Shown here in pieces: positions 1-46,795 of a stretch of DNA of 64,000 nucleotides. A model generated the notes under the pieces. It had not been told where the DNA came from. It saw only the letters and a list, made by a program, of their open reading frames with translations, and searched no databases. Origin of the DNA: Protonemura montana (Eukaryota > Arthropoda > Insecta > Plecoptera > Nemouridae); the NCBI GenBank assembly GCA_947568835.1, contig OX387603.1, forward strand, positions 6,050,701 through 6,114,700. Direction: 5' to 3'. Made by a program: the position numbers and the translations under genes. The first letter of the stretch is position 1; each line of letters begins with the position of its first letter.

Positions 1-1677
1 GTGATGAGAATGACGTCATCGGGGTAGGGAAAGTTCGACAGACGAGTCTAGCCGGTGCCGGGTGTTTTTTTTGTGAGGGTGATGCTGGCGGGGAGGGGGG
101 GGGGGGGGGGGGGCTACGGCCTATACTTTCCCGACCGCGAGAGAGTGTATTTTCCAGCCGCAACATGTACCACCGAATTTAAGTGTGAGACAACAGCAAT
201 TTTGTTACAGTTAGACGAAAAACGAGAGTTACGAAAGTGTAGGTTTTTGAAGAGATACCACAAATCCAGTCTGTTGATGATAAATTACTTGTGGTTATGG
301 AGAATCATCATGGATATTTTTTAAGAGTTGGGAACTTATGAGAGTTATTCATTGATTAAAATATCCAGCAGAGTTCGAATACTCGATTTTTTTCTTGATA
401 TGAATGTCAAACATGGTATTCATACTACATGGCTGGACCCTAAGTGTGTGCTGGGTGAAAAAATAACCATAAAATCAAACACAGCGAGGTCCGTAGTCAT
501 AATAGTCACAAAAATAGAGTACATTTTCTCTAAGCCCAGTCTCTTTTAGCCCACTTACCACCCTTCGGCCCCTGTGCCATTCTAAATAGGTGGCGTCCCA
601 ATAAATCTCAAAAGGACGACAGATTGGCAGATTGGGTTTGTAAGTATAATAGGTATTTAAGAGGCAAAGAATGAGTTAGGGTATAACCAAAGGAACAAAT
701 ATAAATCTAAATTCTGGTGACAAAGCAGTGAATTCTACAAACACCGAGCTGTCAAAACAGAGTTTTTTCACTCCTCGAATAGTTCCACCACTGCATCCTG
801 ATTCCTGTCCACGAACACAATTGCCCAACGCACTGCTAAGTACGAAATGAACAGGAATCGCGGCAATCACAGCAACTTGATCTACTACCCAACATGCTGC
901 GAGCTAGCGTCACGCAATGCGTGCGTTAAATGTTCTTGAAGGCAGGGTTGGAACCCGGGCTTTCCCACGCTCTCTAGACTTGCCGACTCCTAGCAAAGAA
1001 CAATTCTGCCGAACTTCATTCCAACTACTCGGGACAGCTGCAAAGTACTCGGCCAATAGCTCGCCGTTTCGTAGACCGATTCGATGTCTTAAAAGACCGT
1101 CTACAATTAAAAAAATAAATTGTGGGTACCAAACCGCACCTAATTGAAAACGCTTTATATACTCATCTCTTTTACGATTTTTGTATCACGTTTCTGTAGT
1201 TTGCGTTTTCAACAACTTTTTGTCATCTTCCAAATTACTTTTGGAAACGGAGTCCCGTTTTAAAGAAAAACTTGAGCATTCTAAAATGATTGAGCGTTTA
1301 TTAAAGTATATACCTACAGGGAGTTATGCCGCTCATTATCGCTTCCTGCACGGACCAAGTGGTAGGCAAAAGATACACGTCTCCGGGTTGCACGGTTTGC
1401 AAATGGACAAGGTTCGAGCCCAGGCTGGGTCTCGGCCACGGGCTCTCCGTGTATTTTGTAGTCAGGGGGGTGGGGGCAACTTGGATCACACAATTGTTGG
1501 CACGAATGCCGGCTTGGCTTCCGAAGACCACGCTACTCTTATCGGTCTGCTGAAATGTAATACAGCAAGCGAGGCGTCGCGTGTCTGCCGCTTGCAATAA
1601 TTAGCAACACGCCGAATAGGCGAATTCTTGAAGTAGGCTTTCCACCCTTTCCTGGGGTCCCGGCAAGGTAGGTAGCC
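1..1677. other. Upstream intergenic sequence, no gene seen
   Basis: No exon or recognisable protein is seen on either strand. There is a short T run at 64-72 and a G-rich homopolymer run at 88-113. The open frames here are short and resemble nothing known. The right-hand part (about 900-1,600) is less AT-rich and has two weak B-box-like strings (near 951 and 1,411), not enough to call a tRNA or SINE. Confidence 0.5.
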
Positions 1678-1957
1678 GTCGCCTCTGTACTGGACATTCC
1701 GTGACAGGGTGCTTGTTTCACTCCCTGCAAAGGAGTGGGGTCTCGAAGTCGCTTCTGTGCTGGACATTCCATGACAGGGTGCTTGTTTCACTCCACGCAA
1801 AGGAGCGGACACTCGCCGTCGCCTCTGTGCTGGACATTCCGTGACAGGGTGCTTGTTTCGCTCCACGCAAAACAGCGGACACTCGCCGTCGCCTCTGTGC
1901 TGGACATTCCGTGACAGGGTGCTTGTTTCGCTCTCTTCAAAGGAGCGGACACTCGCC
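1678..1957. repeat. 70-bp minisatellite, four tandem copies
   Basis: Four head-to-tail copies of a 70-bp unit start at 1,678, 1,748, 1,818 and 1,888. Each contains the shared core GGACATTCCGTGACAGGG followed by TGCTTGTTTC. The last two copies are nearly identical; the first is the most diverged at its 3' end. Seventy is not a multiple of three, so the long minus-strand open frame crossing it (1,486-1,977) repeats the same DNA in different frames and is not a gene. A single diverged unit lies inverted at 51,903-51,966, so the array grew from a piece of a dispersed repeat. Confidence 0.9.
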
Positions 1958-3937: not shown

Positions 3938-4553
3938 ACCAAACGGTTTGGCTTGTCATAAACACTAGATCTTGTGAGATCACCGAAGTTAAGCCACACT
4001 GAGCTGGATCAGGCATTGGATGGGTGACCATCATACACATAACCAGTTCAGTTTGGGAGGGAAGTTGAAGGAATGAAAGTTAGCACAGCAACTACATTCG
4101 CCTTGCTTATCAATCTCTCGACGGCATGGATTTGTAGAGGAATCCATTTTTAACAAAAACTATTTGAACTGGGTTTTGAATACTAAGTAAAGAACAGCTA
4201 AATTTCCCAACGTTTCGTAACTTGTACTGGTAACTTCTTCAAAACCCAGTTCAAATATTTTTTATTAAAACTAGTGCTTAGGTTAAATCAAGTAGACATG
4301 AGTCTAAAAACAATCATAAAGAAATCCTATTGTTCGCGTTGTACCGTTCTTCAGAAGGGATGTTAAGACGGTGATCCCCTTGGTGCTTTTTGACTGAAGT
4401 AGGCTATGTGTCGGCACTAGGTTTCCCCTCCTTGCTTCTGGGCTAGGTTAGGTTCATCATCATCTGCATCTCTTATTCACTGACGCCATTAGACGAGTGT
4501 CACATGGCCTGTTGTCAAAATATTGCTTTGTTTAACCCCATTTATTAATTAAT
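3938..4553 (+). mobile_element. 5S rRNA-derived SINE (SINE3-like), copy 1, interrupted by a later insertion
   Basis: The head (about 3,965-4,035) matches the internal promoter half of 5S rRNA: GATCTTGTGAGATCACCGA, then GTTAAGC, and TTGGATGGGTGACCATC, the counterparts of the 5S strings ending TGATC(A/T)C(C/G)GA, GTTAAGC and TTGGATGGGTGACCGC. A body follows (AGGAATGAAAGTTAGCACAG, GCCTTGCTTATCAA, GCATGGATTTGTAGAGGAAT). A second insertion breaks it at 4,146-4,322. The body resumes (GTTGTACCGTTCTTC, GGTTTCCCCTCC) and ends in an (ATTA)-like tail at about 4,540-4,553. Copies 2 and 3 on the minus strand (49,989-50,231 and 50,948-51,345) align over the same body, which fixes the element's extent. A Pol III 5S-type promoter is inferred from the head. 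Confidence 0.8.
4146..4322. mobile_element. Small hairpin-bearing retroelement nested in the SINE
   Basis: This roughly 177-bp insertion interrupts SINE copy 1 and is flanked by AATCC on both sides (4,141-4,145 and 4,323-4,327). It contains a perfect 20-bp inverted repeat (4,161-4,180 and 4,238-4,257) around a 57-bp loop. Its right-hand 40-50 bases (ACTAGTGC, then GTAGACATGAGTCTAAAAAC) recur at 34,358-34,411, again inside a target duplication, so this is a family sharing one end. On the minus strand the loop reads TTTGAAGAAG ... ACGAAACG, like the two conserved core strings of a hammerhead ribozyme. The family (Penelope-like or retrozyme-like) is inferred, not shown. Confidence 0.55.
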
Positions 4554-22800: not shown

Positions 22801-25800
22801 ATTTTCAGTGGTATTTGGGTCTAATTTTACAACCCGCCAACATCTCTACAAGAAATGTTCTTACTTCTGTCAATAAACATGTCAAGTGTTTGAATGTCAG
22901 TGTCACTGGTTGGTAACTCCCTGTACGTTGCCTTTCAACAGCTTCGTGGCGGACAATGGTTCTGTGGCCGGCTGCCCTCCGCGGTCTGACTTCTGTGCAT
23001 CCGCGCCGTGCGCCAACGGCGGCATCTGTTCTAACGGTTGGGGCTCGTTCGTGTGCGCTTGTCCGGAAACATTTGCTGGGAAGGATTGCTCGGAGACCAT
23101 TGCCAGGTGCGTTTGAACTAGTCTAGTTTTGTCAATTTTAGTCATAAAGTTTTGTTTTCATGCATAATTTGTTCTATTAGGTGATTTGAAATTTCAAACA
23201 AATTTGTAAACTGTACTTAAGTGCCTAGTGCAATGCTTTGAACTGTCTATTACCATCCATTATGATTTATGATCAACGAAGAATAAAAACTTAAAACACA
23301 TTTCAATTATTAGATTTCTAGCTATGATAAGTATCCTCTCACTGAAAAAAATCACTAAGGCAACAACTAGCAATGAATAGAAGCATTGTTCTTCTTAAAT
23401 AATACTCAAAACTAGGGTGGTTTTGAGATTTAGTCTGACTCGTCTGTTTGTGCGCAGGCCGTGGCGTTTCCAAGGCGATGGATCACTGTCGTTCAACCCG
23501 CTTCTCCGACCGATCCAGCTCCCCTGGACAAATGCTCTGTCAGTCCGGACATTACAGCGGGACGCCTTCCTCATGAGCATTCAGATCGGACAGAACGCCT
23601 CAGTTTCGATCACAGTAAGCTGCTTTCCTGTCTGGTGTCAAATATTCAGAGCAAGGATTTTACCGTCTGCTTTCTTTGCGTCCATTTATTAGATTATGTG
23701 CAAAGATAGAAAACTTCAATGAATGTTTCAATCATTGGTTTTCGCTTTTTTATTAGAGTCTTTCTCATTAAAGTGATAAAAAATTAGGTATTTCATTGCC
23801 TGTAATCAACAGAAAGTCCACAACAAAACCTTGCTCCAAACAGAAAATGTAAAACAACCTTGATTAAAACTTTTTTAATATACATATGGAAAAGGATGTC
23901 AAATTGATTCAAGTCCTCAACACTTCATACGGACAATTCTTTGGAAAGAGTTACGAAAATGTTAGTTATATAATATCCAACTCATCTTTGTCTTCCATAC
24001 CTCTTGTATGTACTCTTGTATGTGTCTTCCATGAACAACGTTGTAAGCAAAACGAGCACCTGAAAATCATTCTCTTGTTTGTAGTTGGCTGGTGGCGAGG
24101 CTGTGTACACCGTTGGCGGTGAATCTCTGCGCTTGTCGCATGCACCTGTTGCCGACGGGGCATGGCACCACGTGTCTGCCACCTGGGCCGGCGCTGACCT
24201 GACGCTCACCCTGGACTACGGTCGGCGGGTTTCCATGACGCCCGTCGCCAAGCTGCAAGGACTCTACGTCGGCAAGATTCTGATCGGGGGACCTGACGCA
24301 GATGCCAACGCGATGGGATCGGAGTATGACTATCTAGATGGCTGCGTTCAGGTAATGAGCTTGAAGAGCTTTTTCTTAACATTTACGTGTTAATTTGCAA
24401 AAAAATTATAAATAGCTCTTCGTTTTCCTAATTATTTAAATAAAAAGCCGTCAATGTAACATGCTACATTTTTCTCCGCATATAGTGGTAACTTTCCATA
24501 TCATGAAAAATAAAGAGAGCCTTGAAAAATAACTCCTGTTACAGAGTCGCTGATATTACAGCTTGGCACTTACACATAAAGTTAAACCTAAGAAAAACAG
24601 AAGGAATTATTTTACAAAAATGCAATCTAGATTTTTAAAAATTAGTGTTAAGTTTAGATATTATCCAAATAAGTCAAAAAACCAAAATGGGTAATTGGCA
24701 ATTGCCTAATAAGTTAATGAGCTGTGCATTATTTAAAGCTGCAATTTAAGAATGGAGTTGGTAGTTTATATGGGTCATTCCATGTGTAATCACTCACCTC
24801 AAACTTTGACCGACCCAGATTTTGATGAAAATTGGTATACTTGTTAAGTTTGTTGACTTAGGGGCTATTTTTTAATTTTTTTTTTTTTGGTCCAACCGTT
24901 CGGATATTACAAGGGGGGGAAGTTGGGGTCATTTTGCCCCCCGCGCGTGTAGTGACCACCCTTTCTACGCAATATCTAGGGTTCTATGGGAGCTACAGAG
25001 CTGGGAAAAAAATCATCTGAAAGGTAATTTCATACCCTACCTGAATATGGAAACAAAAATGACGATATGTTAATACGAATTTAATTGTGATTTTACACAT
25101 CTGCATTTTCCAAAATGACCATATCGCTGATGAGTCATTTTTGATTTGCCTGATTTTTTTTCTATATGTACAGAACATACATATGATCATGTGTTCCAAA
25201 AATCAAGATGGGTGTTCTACTACTTTCCAAGAAAAAAAAATGTTTTCTGCAAATTCATTCATAATATAAATTAATATGAACTGAATTTAAGACAACATTC
25301 AAGAAAATGATCATTACTTACAATCATAGCTACTATGAAGTACAAATTTGCATATCTTAAGAGAGATGTAGTTTACCTTATTGAGGTACATATTTTATAA
25401 GCCCTGCTGTTGCCCTGTTGGTGTCTGTAGCCGACAAAAAGTATGTTCGACCAGTTGCCGTGTTGGGGTCGGCCAGTGTTAAAACATCAGCAAAAGCTAC
25501 AATTAGTTTGTCTTGTACACTGGGATAAAAATATGATGGAGCTGGTCCATGAGGGTGTAGAAAGTTGACTTGAAGTTCAAGAGACTGTGATGATTTTTCA
25601 AGAACACACGCTAGCCACCAGTCTTCGTTGTATGCTACAGTGATGAAACTGCCCACGTCTTTGAACTCAAACTCGGGTATTTCTGCTGCTGTTGCTTCCT
25701 CCTCTTCTTCTTCTTCTTCTTCTTCTCCTTCTTCATTTTTCTCAACAATCTTCACAATGTTGATTTCTTCAGAAAGAGAAAAGTGTTTCACATGTAAGGA

Positions 25801-28800
25801 AGTTAGCGATTTTGGGTAGAACGCATGAAAGCTTCTTGTGCCTACGATAGTTTTTAATTCTTTGAATCGTTCTTTAAGTTTGATGCCATTTGCTGTAATC
25901 TCTTCATTGGCTACAAACACAAAATTTACAGTCCACACATTTTCTGTTGCCCACCGGTAAAAGTCTATCGGCGTCATTATTTGGTCGGCATATGGTTTCT
26001 GTAAACTTGCCCGTGCTGCATTTCGTTTTACAGTCCCACCAACTCCATCGCATGGTCCTTTACCGTGGGATGTGGCAAAAAAATGCCACTCAGCAGTTAG
26101 TTCGAAGTCAACTTCATGATGGCACAAGTTGGAAAAATTCTTCTTATTCTTATATTGGGCTGCCGCTCCATCAGAAAAGTAAATTAAATGGGATACATCC
26201 GAAATGTTTTGTTTCAGGTGTCTTATCAGGTGCTTTTGGAAAGTGTGCACAGTAACGGTGTCATGAGTTAGCGAGTCAGAAATGACAACGTAACTTAAAT
26301 GTTGTATGTCTCGATCTTCAGGCTTAAAGTAACACACAAATGGGTGAAGGGTGCATTGGCTGTTATTCCAATGGTAACCTTGTGCAGCATCCTGGAGCAC
26401 AAAAGAATAATTCTCAGCGAAGTCGCCCACTACTAAAACTTCCCCTGGTTTAAGGTTGGCTTTCTTCTCCTGCATGAATGCCGCTTGCTGCCGTGCAATA
26501 AAATCATGATTTCTTAATAAAATGCATTTTTCAATAAAACAGTCAACAAACTCATCTGTAGGTTTCGTAATTGTCTCTAGGGTACATCTGTCTGTTGACA
26601 GCCACTGTTTATAAGTCACAGAGTCTATGAAATTTTCACTGAATGAGATTTCTAGCCATTCACGAAGTTCATCGGTTCCCGGACAATTGCCACACTTTCC
26701 TACAAAGCAGTTGAGAAGCGGGGGGTTGCACATGAGGCTGGCAAGGCAGTGTTGGTATGATTTGATGGTACCGTCTGAAAGCAAAGGCAGCTTTGCTCCC
26801 AAAGCCATCAACTTAACGTTTTGGTGTATCGTACAGACACAGACAGAATGTGTCCCAGCTGCTCCTGCCAGAACACAATGTTTGGGTCTGAGCTCTGCAA
26901 ACTTCGAGAATCCAACCTTGATGTCAGGATATTTATCTTTGAAGCTGCGATACACTTCACTTAAGTTGCTTAACACTAGTCTCTTCTGGCGGTGAACTCG
27001 ATTGTCACCCACTTTAACCGAGACAAAATCTTTTTTACCCGGCATGACACGGCTTACATCATCATTTTCATAAAACTCTTCAATCAGTTGAATGCAATCA
27101 GGGGAAAGAGTTTTTCCTGCTTTTTGATTTGCAGATGGCAGTATCCCTTGGGCCTTTACTAGTTGTTTGGTTTTACGTACCAAATGGTTAGATGCATTGA
27201 ACTCTTGCATTATTCTCTTAATGCTCCAACTTTTTGGAAGCACAGATAAAATTGTTATTTTCTCGCTTCTGGTACTCGTCTTAAACTTTTCTTTCAGTTG
27301 TGCTATTATCTCTGACCCATCACGGATGCTGTCCTTGCACTCCTCTGAAGATGTCAAATCTTCTTTGCTGATTTCTTCATTACTGGGAGATACTAGTTCC
27401 AATCTCTTCTTTACACCTTGTGTTATTTCGCTGAACTTTCTTTTCGAATAAAACATAGATTTACCCTTTAGTTTGGTGGTATTAATAGGTGACACACCAA
27501 ATGCAGCTAAAGACTGATTCACGGCATCTGCTTCACAGGGTATGTCCACGAAAGGTAGGTCAAGTTCAGTGGATTTAGTTGGCGTTAGAACAGAAACGGT
27601 TGTTAGTTCCTTCAGCCTGAGCGAGAGCAGCTTACGGCAAGTTGAGCATAATTTCTTTCCAGGGATGAGGTCGGCAATCTCCAAGTATTTCGTCCTGGAT
27701 GCTGCATTAATTTCTCTTAACCCATTAACTTTCACTATTCCACAGTGAGCCTGAAACGGATCGCAGCATAACTTGTGGTGACAGCTATACAGACGAAGGA
27801 ATTTCTTTTCATGTAAATGACACACGGTCTTCACATTATCACACTTAGTACGCAGAGCTAATGATAACTGCTGGTCACTATTGAAACTTTCAATGCTTTT
27901 AATCGCTAGATCTTCGATGGGTCCACATTCTTCTTCAAAGAACAGTCCAATTGAGCACATTATGAATCTCTAAATAAAAGGTGCTTGAGAGCAAATTAGC
28001 TTCTATCCTCATCAACATGAGGCCAGAGACTGATTGCTTTAGTCCAGACAAGAAATTACCAAACTTTTTACTTGTAACCTGTTACAACTTGATCCATGAT
28101 TCAGGAGCATGACAAACAATCTATAGTTGTATTCTAGGGAATACCATTTTAAGATTCTTGTAGATGCAAGTCCAGACAAGAAATGAACAAACTTTTGACT
28201 TCTATGAACTGTTTCAACTTGATCCATGATTTACAGGAATATGGCAAACAATCGATTTGTATTGTAGAGAATAACATTTCAAGAACATGCAACTGTGCAA
28301 ACAAAAATCAACTTTAATATAAAATATATGCCAGTGCTCTGATCACAATAATTGTGATCAAAATGCTGTTCTACTGGCAAAAAGGCACTTTTTTATAGAA
28401 AAAAATTTTTTTCTTGGAAAGTGGTAAAACACCCATCTTGATTTTTGGAACACATGATCATATGTATGTTCTGTATATATAGAAAAAAAATCAGGCAAAT
28501 CAAAAATGACTCATCAGCGATATGGTCATTTTGGAAAATGCAGATGTGTAAAATCACAATTAAATTCGTATTAACATATCGTCATTTTTGTTTCCATATT
28601 CAGGTAGGGTATGAAATTACCTTTCAGATGATTTTTTTCCCAGCTCTGTAGCTCCCATAGAACCCTAGATATTGCGTAGAAAGGGTGGTCACTACACGCC
28701 CGGGGGGCAAAATGACCCCAACTTCCCCCCCTTGTAATATCCGAACGGTTGGACCAAAAAAAAAAAAAAAAAAAAATAGCCCCTAAGTCAACAAACTTAA

Positions 28801-31800
28801 CAAGTATACCAATTTTCATCAAAATCTGGGTCGGTCAAAGTGAAATTTAATTAAAAGTGAGTGATTACACATGGAATGACCCATATGTCTAATGTACAAC
28901 CACCGTTCTGTCTCTTCTTTCCAACTAATAAACGAAGTTATGATTCAGGAACCTAGATTCATTCTGTAACCCTAACCTCACACTCTGACGCTTCCAGGAC
29001 GTGCGCGTGGGCTCAGCAACGGCTTCTCTATCCCGCCCGACCGTCCGAGACAACGTTTCCGACGGCTGCGTTTCGGCCGACCAGTGTGTTGGCTCCAACG
29101 GTGAATGTCCCGTCCACGCAGACTGCATCAGCCAATGGGAGCGACCCGAGTGCCGGTGCCAAGCCGGACACGTGGGCGCCACGTGCGTGGAAGCGTGCTC
29201 GCTGGATCCTTGCAAGAACGGGGGGCGTTGCGAGCCGACATTTTCGGACCCTCGAGGGTGAGTGCCTAGACATTGTTGCATCTTTTGTCATCACTTTTCC
29301 ATCTGTTAAGGGCTAGGTTGCTTAAAGGACTGTAAATGTAACCTCATCTTGACTCTTTTTCAAAGTAGGCCTTATTTTTAAACCATGAAGTTTTCTTATA
29401 TTCAACCAATGCTAACGCGCATGTGCCACTTTGTTGCATATGTCTTCCCAGTAACCCCGTCATGTTCTAGCATTGGCCAATCAATTTTGCCCATAATGTG
29501 GCGGACATGACAGATATTTTGCCAATTTCGGGTTACATGGCAGCTGAATAGCTCTCTCCCAATTGCAATACTTGTGTCATTATAATAACCTGATTTATTC
29601 AAGCAAAAATTGAACTGCCCACAACAGCTTTCCTGAAAACCCTGATTTGTCTTCTACAGCTACATGTGTCGTTGTGGCAACCTTACGTCCGGGCCAAACT
29701 GCGAGGTGGTGGCCGATACAGTCTGCCCGGCCGCGTGGTGGGGAGCTCCAGTTTGCGGCCCGTGCCGATGCGAAGTTGCCAAGGGATACGCTGCTGACTG
29801 CAGTCGGACCAACGGCACCTGCGTTTGCCAGGTACGTGGGCTGATTGTTGCATTGTTGGGGATGAAACCTACGTCTGTCTGTCTCTTAACCAATATAAGT
29901 AAAAGATTTTAAAAATAGCAGACTCACTGTCTATCGCCAATGTCTCTAATAATGACAAAGGCAAAACGCTGAAACGTCAAATTCTCGAAAACTTGCCGAT
30001 AAGTTGCGCTCCCTCTCTCCTTCCTTCTCCACCACAGTTAAAACCCACTGTTACCTATATTTGTCACCAATCGTAACTAGTTCCCAAATGTGTATGAAAA
30101 CTAGGCAAATTAAGTAGAAATGTTCAAAAAGTTGCCCATATTCCCTTTGTCTCTCACTTCAAGTATTTAAATTTGCTAATGTATTTGTTTATTTCTCCCT
30201 GTAGGAAGACCACTTCCAGTCTGTGCCGGACGGAGAGTGCCGGGCGTGCAAGTGCTATGCAACCGGCTCACTGGCTCCAGGCTGTGACCGAGAGACCGGC
30301 CAGTGCCGGTGCCGGGACGGAGTTATCGGGCAACGGTGTGATGCTTGCGCCAACCCTTATGCAGAGGTTACCCTCAGGGGGTGCGAAGGTAAGCCAAAGT
30401 GGTAAAGAACTGTCTTCCATGCAGCAGGATTCCTTAAGTGGAGATTTTTATAGAAAATCTATTTGGAATAGCAGAGGCTAATACTTGAGGTTTTTTCCAT
30501 ATGAATCTATCAGATTACGCTGTAAATAATTAAATATAAAGTTAAAAATTGGTTATTTGTTGCTAGACAATTGTGAGTGGTAATCCGTCTTATCAGTAGT
30601 TCAATTTAAGAGAATTAAACAGATATTTTGATAAATGAATTGAATTACAGTAAAGAGTTGATAAATTTAGATAGAAAAGAAAACAAACAAGCTGGGATAA
30701 AAAATATTGAGCAAAACACTTCAGGACAGAAGTGAAAGAGATACGACGACGCATCCCAAGTGCATTGGATGAAATATTGAAAGTGTGTGATTACTCCCTG
30801 TTGTGACTAATACATTCTGTGCTTCTCCGCTTCAGTGATCTACGACGGATGCCCCCGCAGCTTCTCTGCGGGTCGGTGGTGGCGTCGGGCAGCGTTCGAC
30901 TCGACAGCCACCGAGCCCTGCCCGCCGGGTTCGGTGGGCATGGCTTCTCGTCGCTGCTCGGCAACCGAGGGATGGCTCGAGCCTCACCTGTTCAACTGCA
31001 CCTCAGACGGGTTCATCGGGCTGCGCAAAGTCGTGAGTTACCTAGATCCTGGGGATCTAGTCACATGCCCAGTTGAACATGCATATCGCTCCCAGTGCAC
31101 ACCCGAGGTGCACCGGGGCAGCTAGCCGGATACGCCATTAGTATTGCAATTCCCCCTCCAGACAATCCAACAAGAATAAAACAATAGACACAGTTCAATA
31201 AGCCATTACCTGATTTATTTGAAAGGGTTTTTGGTTGTGGAGTTAGTAGCAAAATATACTTCACAATTAATATTTGTCTCTACATTCCAATTTATGAACA
31301 CTTAATGTTAGTGTGCTCAGGGCTTAGTAACAAATTATCTATATCAGTTACTATTGCATACCTAGCGTGATGTGAATCCTAAATGCTGCCAACTCTTTGA
31401 TACACAGCTTTCCGAGCTAGAGGCGCAGACACAAACGTTGGGCACGTTCGTGGCCATCAAGGTGGCGGCGGACTTGCGAGCCGCGACCGAGGCCCAACCG
31501 GATCTGCGAGGCGCCGACTTGCTGGTCACGCAACGGCTGCTCCGTGAGATACTAGGCCACGAGGTCGGCCAGGTTGGGCTCAACCTCACGCACTCGCGCG
31601 ACAAGGACTTTGTCGGCAACATTGTAGCAGCCGTGTCGGCAGTCTTGCAGGACAAGTACGACGGGTGAGTTGTTTGCCGGGTTGCCCAGTCCCGGAACTT
31701 GTTTTAAGTTGGAGGCTACATCCTGGGTAGAGTTGCTATTTGTATTTTTCTTGTGACATTTGAAGTGTTGTCTTGTTTGCAAATAGATTGTTTTAAAAGA

Positions 31801-44041: not shown

Positions 44042-44116
44042 GTCTGTGCGGCGCAATGGTAAAGCCGCTGCTTCGGTAATCTCAAAGGTATCCGCTACCT
44101 GGATCGAATCCTCTCG
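44042..44116 (+). repeat. tRNA-like (type II, Leu/Ser-like) segment
   Basis: GCGCAATGGTAAAGCC resembles an A box with D arm, AGGTATCCGCTACCT can form a long variable arm, and GGATCGAATCC is B-box-like. The acceptor stem does not close, so it is a tRNA-derived repeat head, not a working tRNA. Its 3' half recurs at about 46,255-46,292. Confidence 0.55.
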
Positions 44117-44207
44117 TTTTTACCGTTGGAATACGACATCCAACATCCACTTGTGATAGCTGGAGTCGGGAAACTTATATATATCAAAAATACCGAACAA
44201 ATCACAC

Positions 44208-44291
44208 GTCCGCTTGGTCGTGCGGTTAAAGGCATCGAATGTATCGATCATGTGATCATTGGTATTCCTAGATACCAGGTTCGAATCACGT
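44208..44291 (+). repeat. tRNA-like (type II) segment, array unit 1
   Basis: GCTTGGTCGTGCGGTTAAAG fits a Leu/Ser-type D arm, TGGTATTCCTAGATACCA a variable arm, and GGTTCGAATC a B box. Related segments lie at 44,940-45,034, 45,695-45,790 and 46,389-46,472; the middle two carry a different central part (CATCACATCGTC, then GAAGCTACTAGG). None closes a proper acceptor stem. Confidence 0.6.
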
Positions 44292-46795
44292 ATATGCCAC
44301 TGCACAGTTCTTACCTTTTGCCTTTTTTTTCGGGCGCATGGTTTAATAGCAGCAGAATTGCCGGGCGCTCCTAGCGCTTCGCGTCAGTCGCGCCCGCCAC
44401 TTTTGCGGGCCGGAGCCACGACCCCAAGCCCCACCTATACCCCATGTGCAGCTCCTACGTCTAGCATCAAGAGTATAGGAACGATAGGTACTTAGTGATA
44501 ACGTCAACCAGCGCCACCTGTTGGCAGATTCTCGTACTACCATTTAGACGTTTAACATGTTTGATACCCAGAGACTGGCGGTAGTACCAGATTTTGCCAA
44601 CAGGTGGCGCTGATTGATGCTAACACTTATTACCTATCGTTCCTATACTCTTGATGCTAGACGTAGGAGCTGCACACGGGAAGAGGTGGGGTCTGGGGTT
44701 CGTGGGAACGGCTCGCAAAATTGGCGGGCGTGACTGGGGCTTGGCGCTAGGAGTGCTGTTGAAACCATACGCAAACAAAAGAATGGCAAAAATGTACTAA
44801 GGAACTTTGTGATAGGTATCCAGTACGTGAATCGGCACTTCTCAATGAAGGAATCTTTACCGTTGGAATACGAAATCCAACAACCACCAGCGGGAGTCTG
44901 GAGACTTAAATATCTCAAAAATAAAAGGTAACGGAAATACCCGCTTGGTCGTGCGGTTTAAGGCATGGATCATTTCATCACATCGTCTAAACTGAATCTA
45001 TTAGAAGAGTGAAGCTACTAGGTTCGAATCACGTTCATTCCACGTTGTGGTTTTTCATTTTTGTTTTGGAAGTATATTTTAGACAGTAGCAAAATCGCCG
45101 GGCGCTCCTGGCGCTTCGCGCCAGTCGCGCCCGCCAATTTTGCGGGACGTTCCCACGACCCCAAACCCCACCTATACCCCGTGTGCAGCTCCTAAGTCTA
45201 GCATCAAGAGTATAGGAACGATAGGTAATTAGTGTTAGCATCAATCAGCGCCACCTGTTGGCAGATTCTCGTACTACTATTTAGACGTTCAACATTTTTT
45301 ATTTTTTCGATAGTTTGATACCTCAGAGACTGGCGGTAGTACCAGATTTTGCCAACAGGTGGCGCTGATTGATGCTAACACTAATTACCTATCGTTCCTA
45401 TACTCTTGATGCTAGACGTAGGAGCTGCACACGGGGATAGGTGGGGTTTGGGGTCGTGGGAACGGCTCGCAAAATTGGCGGGCGCGACTGGCGCTATGGC
45501 GCTAGGAGTGCTGTTGAAACCATACGCAAACAAAAGAATGGCAAAAATGTACTTAGGATCTTTGTGATAGGTATCCAGGACGTGGATGAGCACTTTACAA
45601 TGAAGGAATCTTTACCGTTGGAATACGAAATCCAACAACCACCAGCGGGAGTCTGGAGACTTAAATATCTCAAAAATAAAAGGTAACGGAAATACCCGCT
45701 TGGTCGTGCGGTTTAAGGCATGGATCATTTCATCACATCGTCAAAACTGAATCTACTAGAAGAGTGAAGCTACTAGGTTCGAATCACGTTCAATCCACGT
45801 TGTGGTTTTTCATTTTTGTTTTGGAAGTATATTTAAGACAGTAGCAAAACTGCCGGGCGCTCCTGGCGCTTCGCGCCAGTCGCGCCCGCCAGTTTTGCGG
45901 GCTGTTCCCACGACCCCAAACCCCACCTAAACCCCGTGTGCAGCTCCTAAGTCTAGCATCAAGAGTATAGGAACGATAGGTAATAAGTGTTAGCATCAAC
46001 CAGCGCCACCTGTTGGCAGATTCTCGTACTACCATTTAGACGTTTAACATTTTTGATTTTTTCGATAGTTTGATACCCAGAGGCTGGCGGTAGTACCAGA
46101 TTTTGCCAACAGGTGGCGCTGATTGATGCTAACACTAATTACCTATCGTTCCTATACTCTTGATGCTAGACGTAGGAGCTGCACACGGGGTTTAGGTGGG
46201 GTTTGGAGTCGTGGGAACAACCCGCAAAATTGGCGGGCGCGACTGGCGCGAAGCCAGTAATCGCAAAGGTATCCGCTACCTGGATCGAATCCTCTCGTTT
46301 TTACCGTTGGAATGCGACATCCAACATTCACTTGTGATGGCTGGAGTCGGGAAACTTATATATCTCAAAAATACGCAACAAATCATACGTCCGCTTGGTC
46401 GCGCGGTTAAAGGCATCGAATGTTTCGATCATGTGATCATTGGCATTCCTAGATACCAGGTTCGAATCACGTATGTGCCACTGCACAGTTCCACACTTTT
46501 GCCATTTTTTTCGGGCGCATGGTTTAGAAAGTAGCAAAATTGCCGGGCGCTCCTGGCGCTTCGCGCCAGTCGCGCCCGCCAATTTTGCGGGCCGTTCCCA
46601 CGACCCCAAACCCCACCTCTACCCCGTGTGCAGCTCCTACGTCTAGCATCAAGTATATAGGAATGGAAACTAGAGTTAAGCACAAAACAAGCATCAGAGC
46701 CACCTGTTGGCAGAATGTGGCACTACACTCTGGACTTGGAATAATTTTTTAGTTTTGTTCGAGTGTTATCTATTTCGATGGTAAGAAACCAAAAC

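What the first reader, a model, noticed from the sequence alone, without database searches (positions are those of the whole stretch)
24771..28883. Uninterrupted DNA transposon with unusually long inverted arms inside a Flamingo intron
Seen directly: near-identical arms of about 475 bp, an 860-codon intronless transposase without stops, a Cys/His-rich N-terminus, three acidic residues in conserved-looking motifs (GDFAEN, FSDGAA, CDGVGG) and a tudor-like C-terminus. The element lies in antisense to the host gene. The combination of TGGG/GGG ends, an ambiguous TA or ATAT target duplication and this protein does not let me place it in a superfamily with confidence; Sola2 is my leading guess. Intact arms and frame suggest recent activity.
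Basis: partly seen in the sequence, partly recalled or inferred. Interest (0 to 1): 0.7.

Follow-up and report, generated by a model that had tools for sequence, protein, structure and literature searches.

The report
Freshly multiplied intact jumping gene
A complete cut-and-paste jumping gene sits in an intron of an animal's Flamingo gene; about 165 nearly identical copies lie in the same genome, so it spread very recently and may still move, but it is probably a new member of a known kind of transposon.

Summary
The element is window 24772-28882 (4111 bp), flanked by ATAT, with arms of 477/467 nt (98% complementary) and one 860-aa frame, antisense in an intron of a Flamingo/CELSR-like gene. 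The TA-or-ATAT doubt is settled: 33 of 35 insertions with both flanks have an exact 4-bp duplication, none longer, in AT-rich targets. The genome holds about 165 copies; 29 copies compared differ at 9 of 119,219 positions and decayed tips are almost absent: a very recent burst. I found a sister family (46% identical protein, same 12-nt tip, 3780 bp) that conserves D513, D597 and D638. Many sister copies are near-perfect palindromes (foldbacks) of the element's 3' part, in repeated size classes; the window family shows none among the copies examined. Best reading: an autonomous, probably active DDD cut-and-paste transposon of the Sola superfamily, most likely Sola2. TSD, size and arm length fit published Sola descriptions, but no library held a Sola profile, so membership is untested by homology. 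Both structure predictions were too poor to show whether the Asp residues meet. The arms lie within Sola's published range. The tudor-like C-terminus has no Pfam support and is absent from the sister protein.

The parts
24768..24771 (.). target site duplication ATAT, left
   Evidence: 33 of 35 insertions have an exact 4-bp duplication
24772..25238 (.). terminal inverted repeat on the 3' side of the transposase gene (467 nt)
25378..27960 (-). transposase gene, 860 aa, no intron; D513, D597, D638; Cys/His clusters at 47-108 and 362-459
28041..28284 (.). 130-bp unit in 1.9 tandem copies between the 5' arm and the ORF
28406..28882 (.). terminal inverted repeat on the 5' side of the transposase gene (477 nt)
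28883..28886 (.). target site duplication ATAT, right

Best explanation
An autonomous cut-and-paste DNA transposon of the Sola superfamily, most likely Sola2, seen very soon after a burst. The 860-aa transposase is inferred to bind the tips (GGGTCATTCCAT) and arms through its Cys/His-rich parts and to cut and join DNA with an Asp-Asp-Asp triad (D513, D597, D638) in an RNase-H-like core. It inserts with a 4-bp stagger into AT-rich targets with a weak palindromic preference (TNRC-WWWW-GYNA). Shown: ends, copy number, near-identity, intact frames, 4-bp duplications, target preference, conservation of the three Asp in a sister family. Inferred: catalytic role, fold, zinc binding, present activity, Sola2 membership.
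For: About 165 copies; 53 of 53 scored protein matches (581 candidates) identical, full length, stop-free; 9 differences in 29 x 4111 bp; 33 of 35 insertions with exact 4-bp duplications in AT-rich targets; three Asp and a Cys/His cluster invariant in a sister protein, with codon-position identity 56.5/68.4/31.7%. Published Sola passages: DDD, 4-bp TSDs, mostly 2-9 kb, TIRs 11-1124 bp (PMC10741241); amoebal Sola2: AT-rich 4-bp TSDs, 888-aa transposase (PMC3627910).
Against: No homology test against any Sola protein was possible. No Pfam, NCBIfam or PDB match and no structure model worth using. The amoebal Sola2 elements in PMC3627910 have short TIRs (12-21 bp), unlike these. 4-bp TSDs also occur in other superfamilies (recalled). 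Activity today is not shown.
Confidence: 0.7

Rival explanations
1. It belongs to a separate, undescribed superfamily of DDD cut-and-paste transposons that shares only the 4-bp duplication with Sola.
For: No profile or structure match; no relative in viral or prokaryote contigs, although Sola is said to occur in bacteria (PMC10741241); the motif strings occur in no held paper.
Against: TSD length, AT-rich targets, protein size and arm length all fit Sola; the libraries searched hold no Sola family by name among the matches, so absence of a match says little.
Confidence: 0.18
2. It belongs to another known superfamily with 4-bp duplications (Chapaev/CMC, Ginger or Academ).
For: TSD length alone allows it (recalled).
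Against: No integrase, helicase or other Pfam match up to E 10; tips start GGG.
Confidence: 0.06
3. The near-identical copies are largely an assembly artefact.
For: Long identical repeats are hard to assemble; one locus is a nested composite with a flipped terminal segment.
Against: 35 insertions with distinct flanks, 33 with their own 4-bp duplication; copies lie on several large contigs.
Confidence: 0.02

Closest known systems
Sola superfamily, Sola2 group (Bao et al. 2009, recalled, not held; passages of PMC10741241, PMC3627910, PMC4455052 and PMC10294476 read)
   Same: 4-bp AT-rich TSDs, DDD-like triad (inferred here), size, one large transposase; Sola TIRs of 11-1124 bp are published
   Different: Long arms, whereas the amoebal Sola2 elements of PMC3627910 have 12-21 bp TIRs; no Fanzor gene; homology untested
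Foldback elements, e.g. Tetris of Drosophila virilis (PMC4079207, search listing and start of abstract only)
   Same: Sister-family derivatives consist almost wholly of inverted repeats
   Different: Their arms are the transposase coding sequence of an identifiable parent family; the window element itself is not a foldback
Mu killer / MuDR of maize (recalled; PMC8224964 in search listing only)
   Same: Inverted duplication of transposase sequence that could make hairpin RNA
   Different: No RNA evidence here; here the foldbacks occur in several repeated size classes

Membership tests
Sola superfamily | 4-bp target site duplication | tested here: met
   33 of 35 insertions
Sola superfamily | DDD transposase | tested here: inconclusive
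   Three Asp conserved in a sister family; structure models unusable
Sola superfamily | Size mostly 2-9 kb and TIRs of 11-1124 bp | tested here: met
   4111 bp; 477/467 nt; range from PMC10741241
Sola2 group | AT-rich 4-bp TSDs | tested here: met
   W at 117 of 132 TSD positions; AWWT and the like in PMC3627910
Sola2 group | Transposase sequence similar to Sola2 transposases | not testable with these tools
   No Sola2 protein or profile available; Pfam, NCBIfam and PDB gave no transposase match
Tc1/mariner | TA duplication | tested here: not met
   4-bp duplications
piggyBac, Kolobok, Sola3 | TTAA target (recalled) | tested here: not met
   Varied 4-bp duplications, listed for 27 copies; none is TTAA
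Ginger and Academ | Integrase core, or helicase (recalled) | tested here: not met
   No such Pfam match up to E 10

The most novel reading that the evidence does not exclude
Two sister families are caught in a sequence-based arms race in one genome. The sister family has bred mobile, near-perfect palindromes of its own transposase gene, which if transcribed would make long hairpin RNA that silences it (as Mu killer does to MuDR, recalled). The window family shares no exact stretch of 19 nt or more with the sister copy compared, so 21-24 nt RNAs from those hairpins would not match it perfectly; this would explain its unchecked burst of about 165 copies.
Probability: 0.12. Interest if true: 0.75.

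Novelty: new member of a known kind. Interest (0 to 1): 0.45.

Why it matters
This transposase had no match in Pfam, NCBIfam or the PDB sequences. A paper search pairing Sola terms with excision or transposition assays found 31 papers; in the 15 listed no Sola term was counted, and the other 16 were not seen. A family of about 165 near-identical full-length copies, with clear ends, 4-bp duplications and a sister at 46% identity, is good material for testing how this kind of transposase cuts and joins DNA. The two families, one with mobile palindromic derivatives and one with none seen so far, would also let one test when foldbacks arise and whether they restrain their parent.

Tried and rejected
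Relatives elsewhere: viral contigs by protein, fragment and two-row alignment and genome contigs confirmed none; these scans rest on a few short peptides each. A degenerate motif scan of viral contigs gave two stretches whose translations around the motif look unrelated.

Structure: whole protein and core fragment, both without an alignment, gave mean pLDDT 34 and 37; I ran no fold search on them.

TA duplication rejected. Single copy rejected. Older decayed copies of the window family: only 3 more tips per strand at up to 3 mismatches. A wobble-excluding exact pattern found nothing. The motif count of 304 looked at first like 304 copies; it is about 165 of this family plus about 141 sites of others, the 100 listed of which all belong to the sister family. 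A third lineage: one site, with TGA where the motif has Cys.

In one search I compared copies without orienting them, so its difference counts are wrong; one search replaces them. In one search the sister element carried extra bases at both ends, so its positions are off by one; one search uses the right bounds.

Paper searches; no held paper contains the six motif strings tried. Bao et al. 2009 and Yuan and Wessler 2011 are not held.

Full report
OBSERVATION. Window 24772-28882 is a 4111-bp element flanked by ATAT on both sides. Its arms are inverted repeats of 477 and 467 nt, about 98% alike, with an indel 27 nt from the tip. One ORF of 860 codons lies on the minus strand at 25378-27960; it is the only ORF of 170 aa or more listed in the window. 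Of 8 plus-strand segments tested, 6 match cadherin, laminin G or secretin-type 7TM domains above the curated cut-off, one matches EGF just above it, and one has no match, as expected of Flamingo/CELSR. The element is therefore antisense in an intron of that gene.

COPIES. The genome has 258 Mb in 34 contigs. Exact 26-nt tips: 164 forward and 164 reverse. With up to 3 mismatches: 167 and 167. The 5'-side 50-mer, one per copy: 165. An inner-arm 32-mer with up to 2 mismatches: 164 and 165. In the 100 tip places listed, 48 elements pair up, 46 at 4111 bp, one at 4110 and one at 4112; the other 4 places are a nested cluster of two copies. So deletion derivatives and decayed tips are nearly absent. 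The protein search scored 53 of 581 candidates; all 53 were 100% identical, full length and stop-free. The other copies' frames were not read.

AGE. Of 30 loci (L009-L038, the window copy among them), 29 gave a full element with both tips; L015 did not and was dropped. These 29 differ from their majority at 9 positions in 119,219 bp (7.5e-5 per site); 22 of 29 have none. With a mutation rate near 3e-9 per site and generation (recalled), this is at most some tens of thousands of generations, and less if shared differences predate copying or are assembly errors. The window copy shares its one difference with L014.

TARGET SITE. Pooling the 29 with 14 tip pairs (L039-L066) and removing repeats gives 35 distinct insertions with both flanks; L067 and L068 belong to the nested cluster and were not used. 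33 of 35 have an exact 4-bp duplication and none a longer one; chance agreement is 0.5% per insertion. The exceptions are the nested copy L016 and L029. W fills 117 of 132 TSD positions (P 4e-12). Counting both strands, C lies directly beside the TSD at 29 of 66 (P 5e-6) and T three bases further out at 35 of 66 (P 2e-4). The target reads TNRC-WWWW-GYNA. These positions were picked after looking, so the P values are optimistic (all).

A SISTER FAMILY. A count of the catalytic motif with up to 3 mismatches gave 304 sites, more than the 165 copies. A pattern made to exclude the window family found 141 sites; the 100 listed all read HGKSACDGVG. One copy (L071) has arms of 511 nt at 98%, a 697-aa ORF opened by TTG, so its start is uncertain, and the TSD CTAT. 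It is 3780 bp long and starts with the same 12 bases. Its protein is 46% identical over 698 aligned positions (48% in the alignment). D513, E516, D597 and D638 are invariant, as are Cys and His at 362-459. Codon-position identity is 56.5, 68.4 and 31.7%, so the protein is under selection. Of 65 matches listed for the sister protein (64 of 474 candidates scored), 49 are full length without stops. The sister protein lacks the window protein's acidic stretch and C-terminal domain, so that domain is not needed by every member if the sister is autonomous.

FOLDBACKS. Of the first 100 of 141 motif sites, 60 form 30 head-to-head pairs at a few fixed distances (1318 x8, 1415 x7, 1203 x6, 834 x5, 899 x2, 1525, 830); 40 are single. 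The middle of one (L072) is two oppositely oriented 99.8% copies of about sister positions 2410-2938, self-complementary over 1025 nt at 98%. Only this one centre was read. Among the first 100 of 202 exact sister tips, 42 elements pair: 24 are 3778-3784 bp; 15 have lengths of elements that hold a motif pair (3304 x4, 2723 x4, 3090 x4, 3412, 2718, 2789); the rest are 3694, 3767 and 1006 bp; 16 tips are unpaired. Repeated size classes suggest that foldbacks themselves moved. The window element and the sister copy share no exact stretch of 19 nt or more.

MECHANISM. Motif order, conserved Asp and the 4-bp duplication fit a DDD cut-and-paste transposase. This rests on conservation and analogy. AlphaFold without an alignment gave mean pLDDT 34 and 37, which I do not use. 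Pfam, NCBIfam and PDB sequences gave no transposase match.

COMPARISON. Passages describe Sola as DDD with 4-bp TSDs, mostly 2-9 kb and TIRs of 11-1124 bp (PMC10741241), as divided into Sola1-3 in Repbase (PMC4455052), and amoebal Sola2 as having AT-rich 4-bp TSDs, an 888-aa transposase and short TIRs (PMC3627910). PMC10294476 curated 14 Sola2 elements with profiles for 17 superfamilies (passages); PMC12477816 lists Sola-2 in Ectocarpus (passages). The element works like, and probably is, a Sola2; homology was not testable here.

VERDICT. A real, intact, very recently amplified transposon of a probably known kind. The surprise lies in its youth and in the contrast with its foldback-rich sister.

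Noticed in passing
G000 C1:13656551-13659273 (centre read as L072), C1:2860663-2863966 and others: Sister-family foldbacks: near-perfect palindromes of the 3' part of the element, in repeated size classes.
   Followed up: partly
G000 C1:22022459-22030684 (L015, L016): One copy of the window family inserted in another's 3' arm at TTAG; the inner copy's last 85 bp appear inverted relative to a plain nested insertion. Recombination between inverted repeats or an assembly error could explain it.
   Followed up: partly
G000 C14:1480919-1480947: A single site resembling the catalytic motif with TGA where the Cys codon lies: perhaps a decayed third lineage.
   Followed up: no
window 28041-28284: 130-bp unit, 1.9 tandem copies, inside the element between the 5' arm and the ORF; possibly promoter or leader.
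   Followed up: no
window 44063-44371 and 46196-46531: Two similar translated segments (KGIRYLDRILSFLPLE...) about 2.1 kb apart on the plus strand, perhaps another repeat.
   Followed up: no
window 1675-1957: 70-bp unit in four tandem copies, 88% matches.
   Followed up: no
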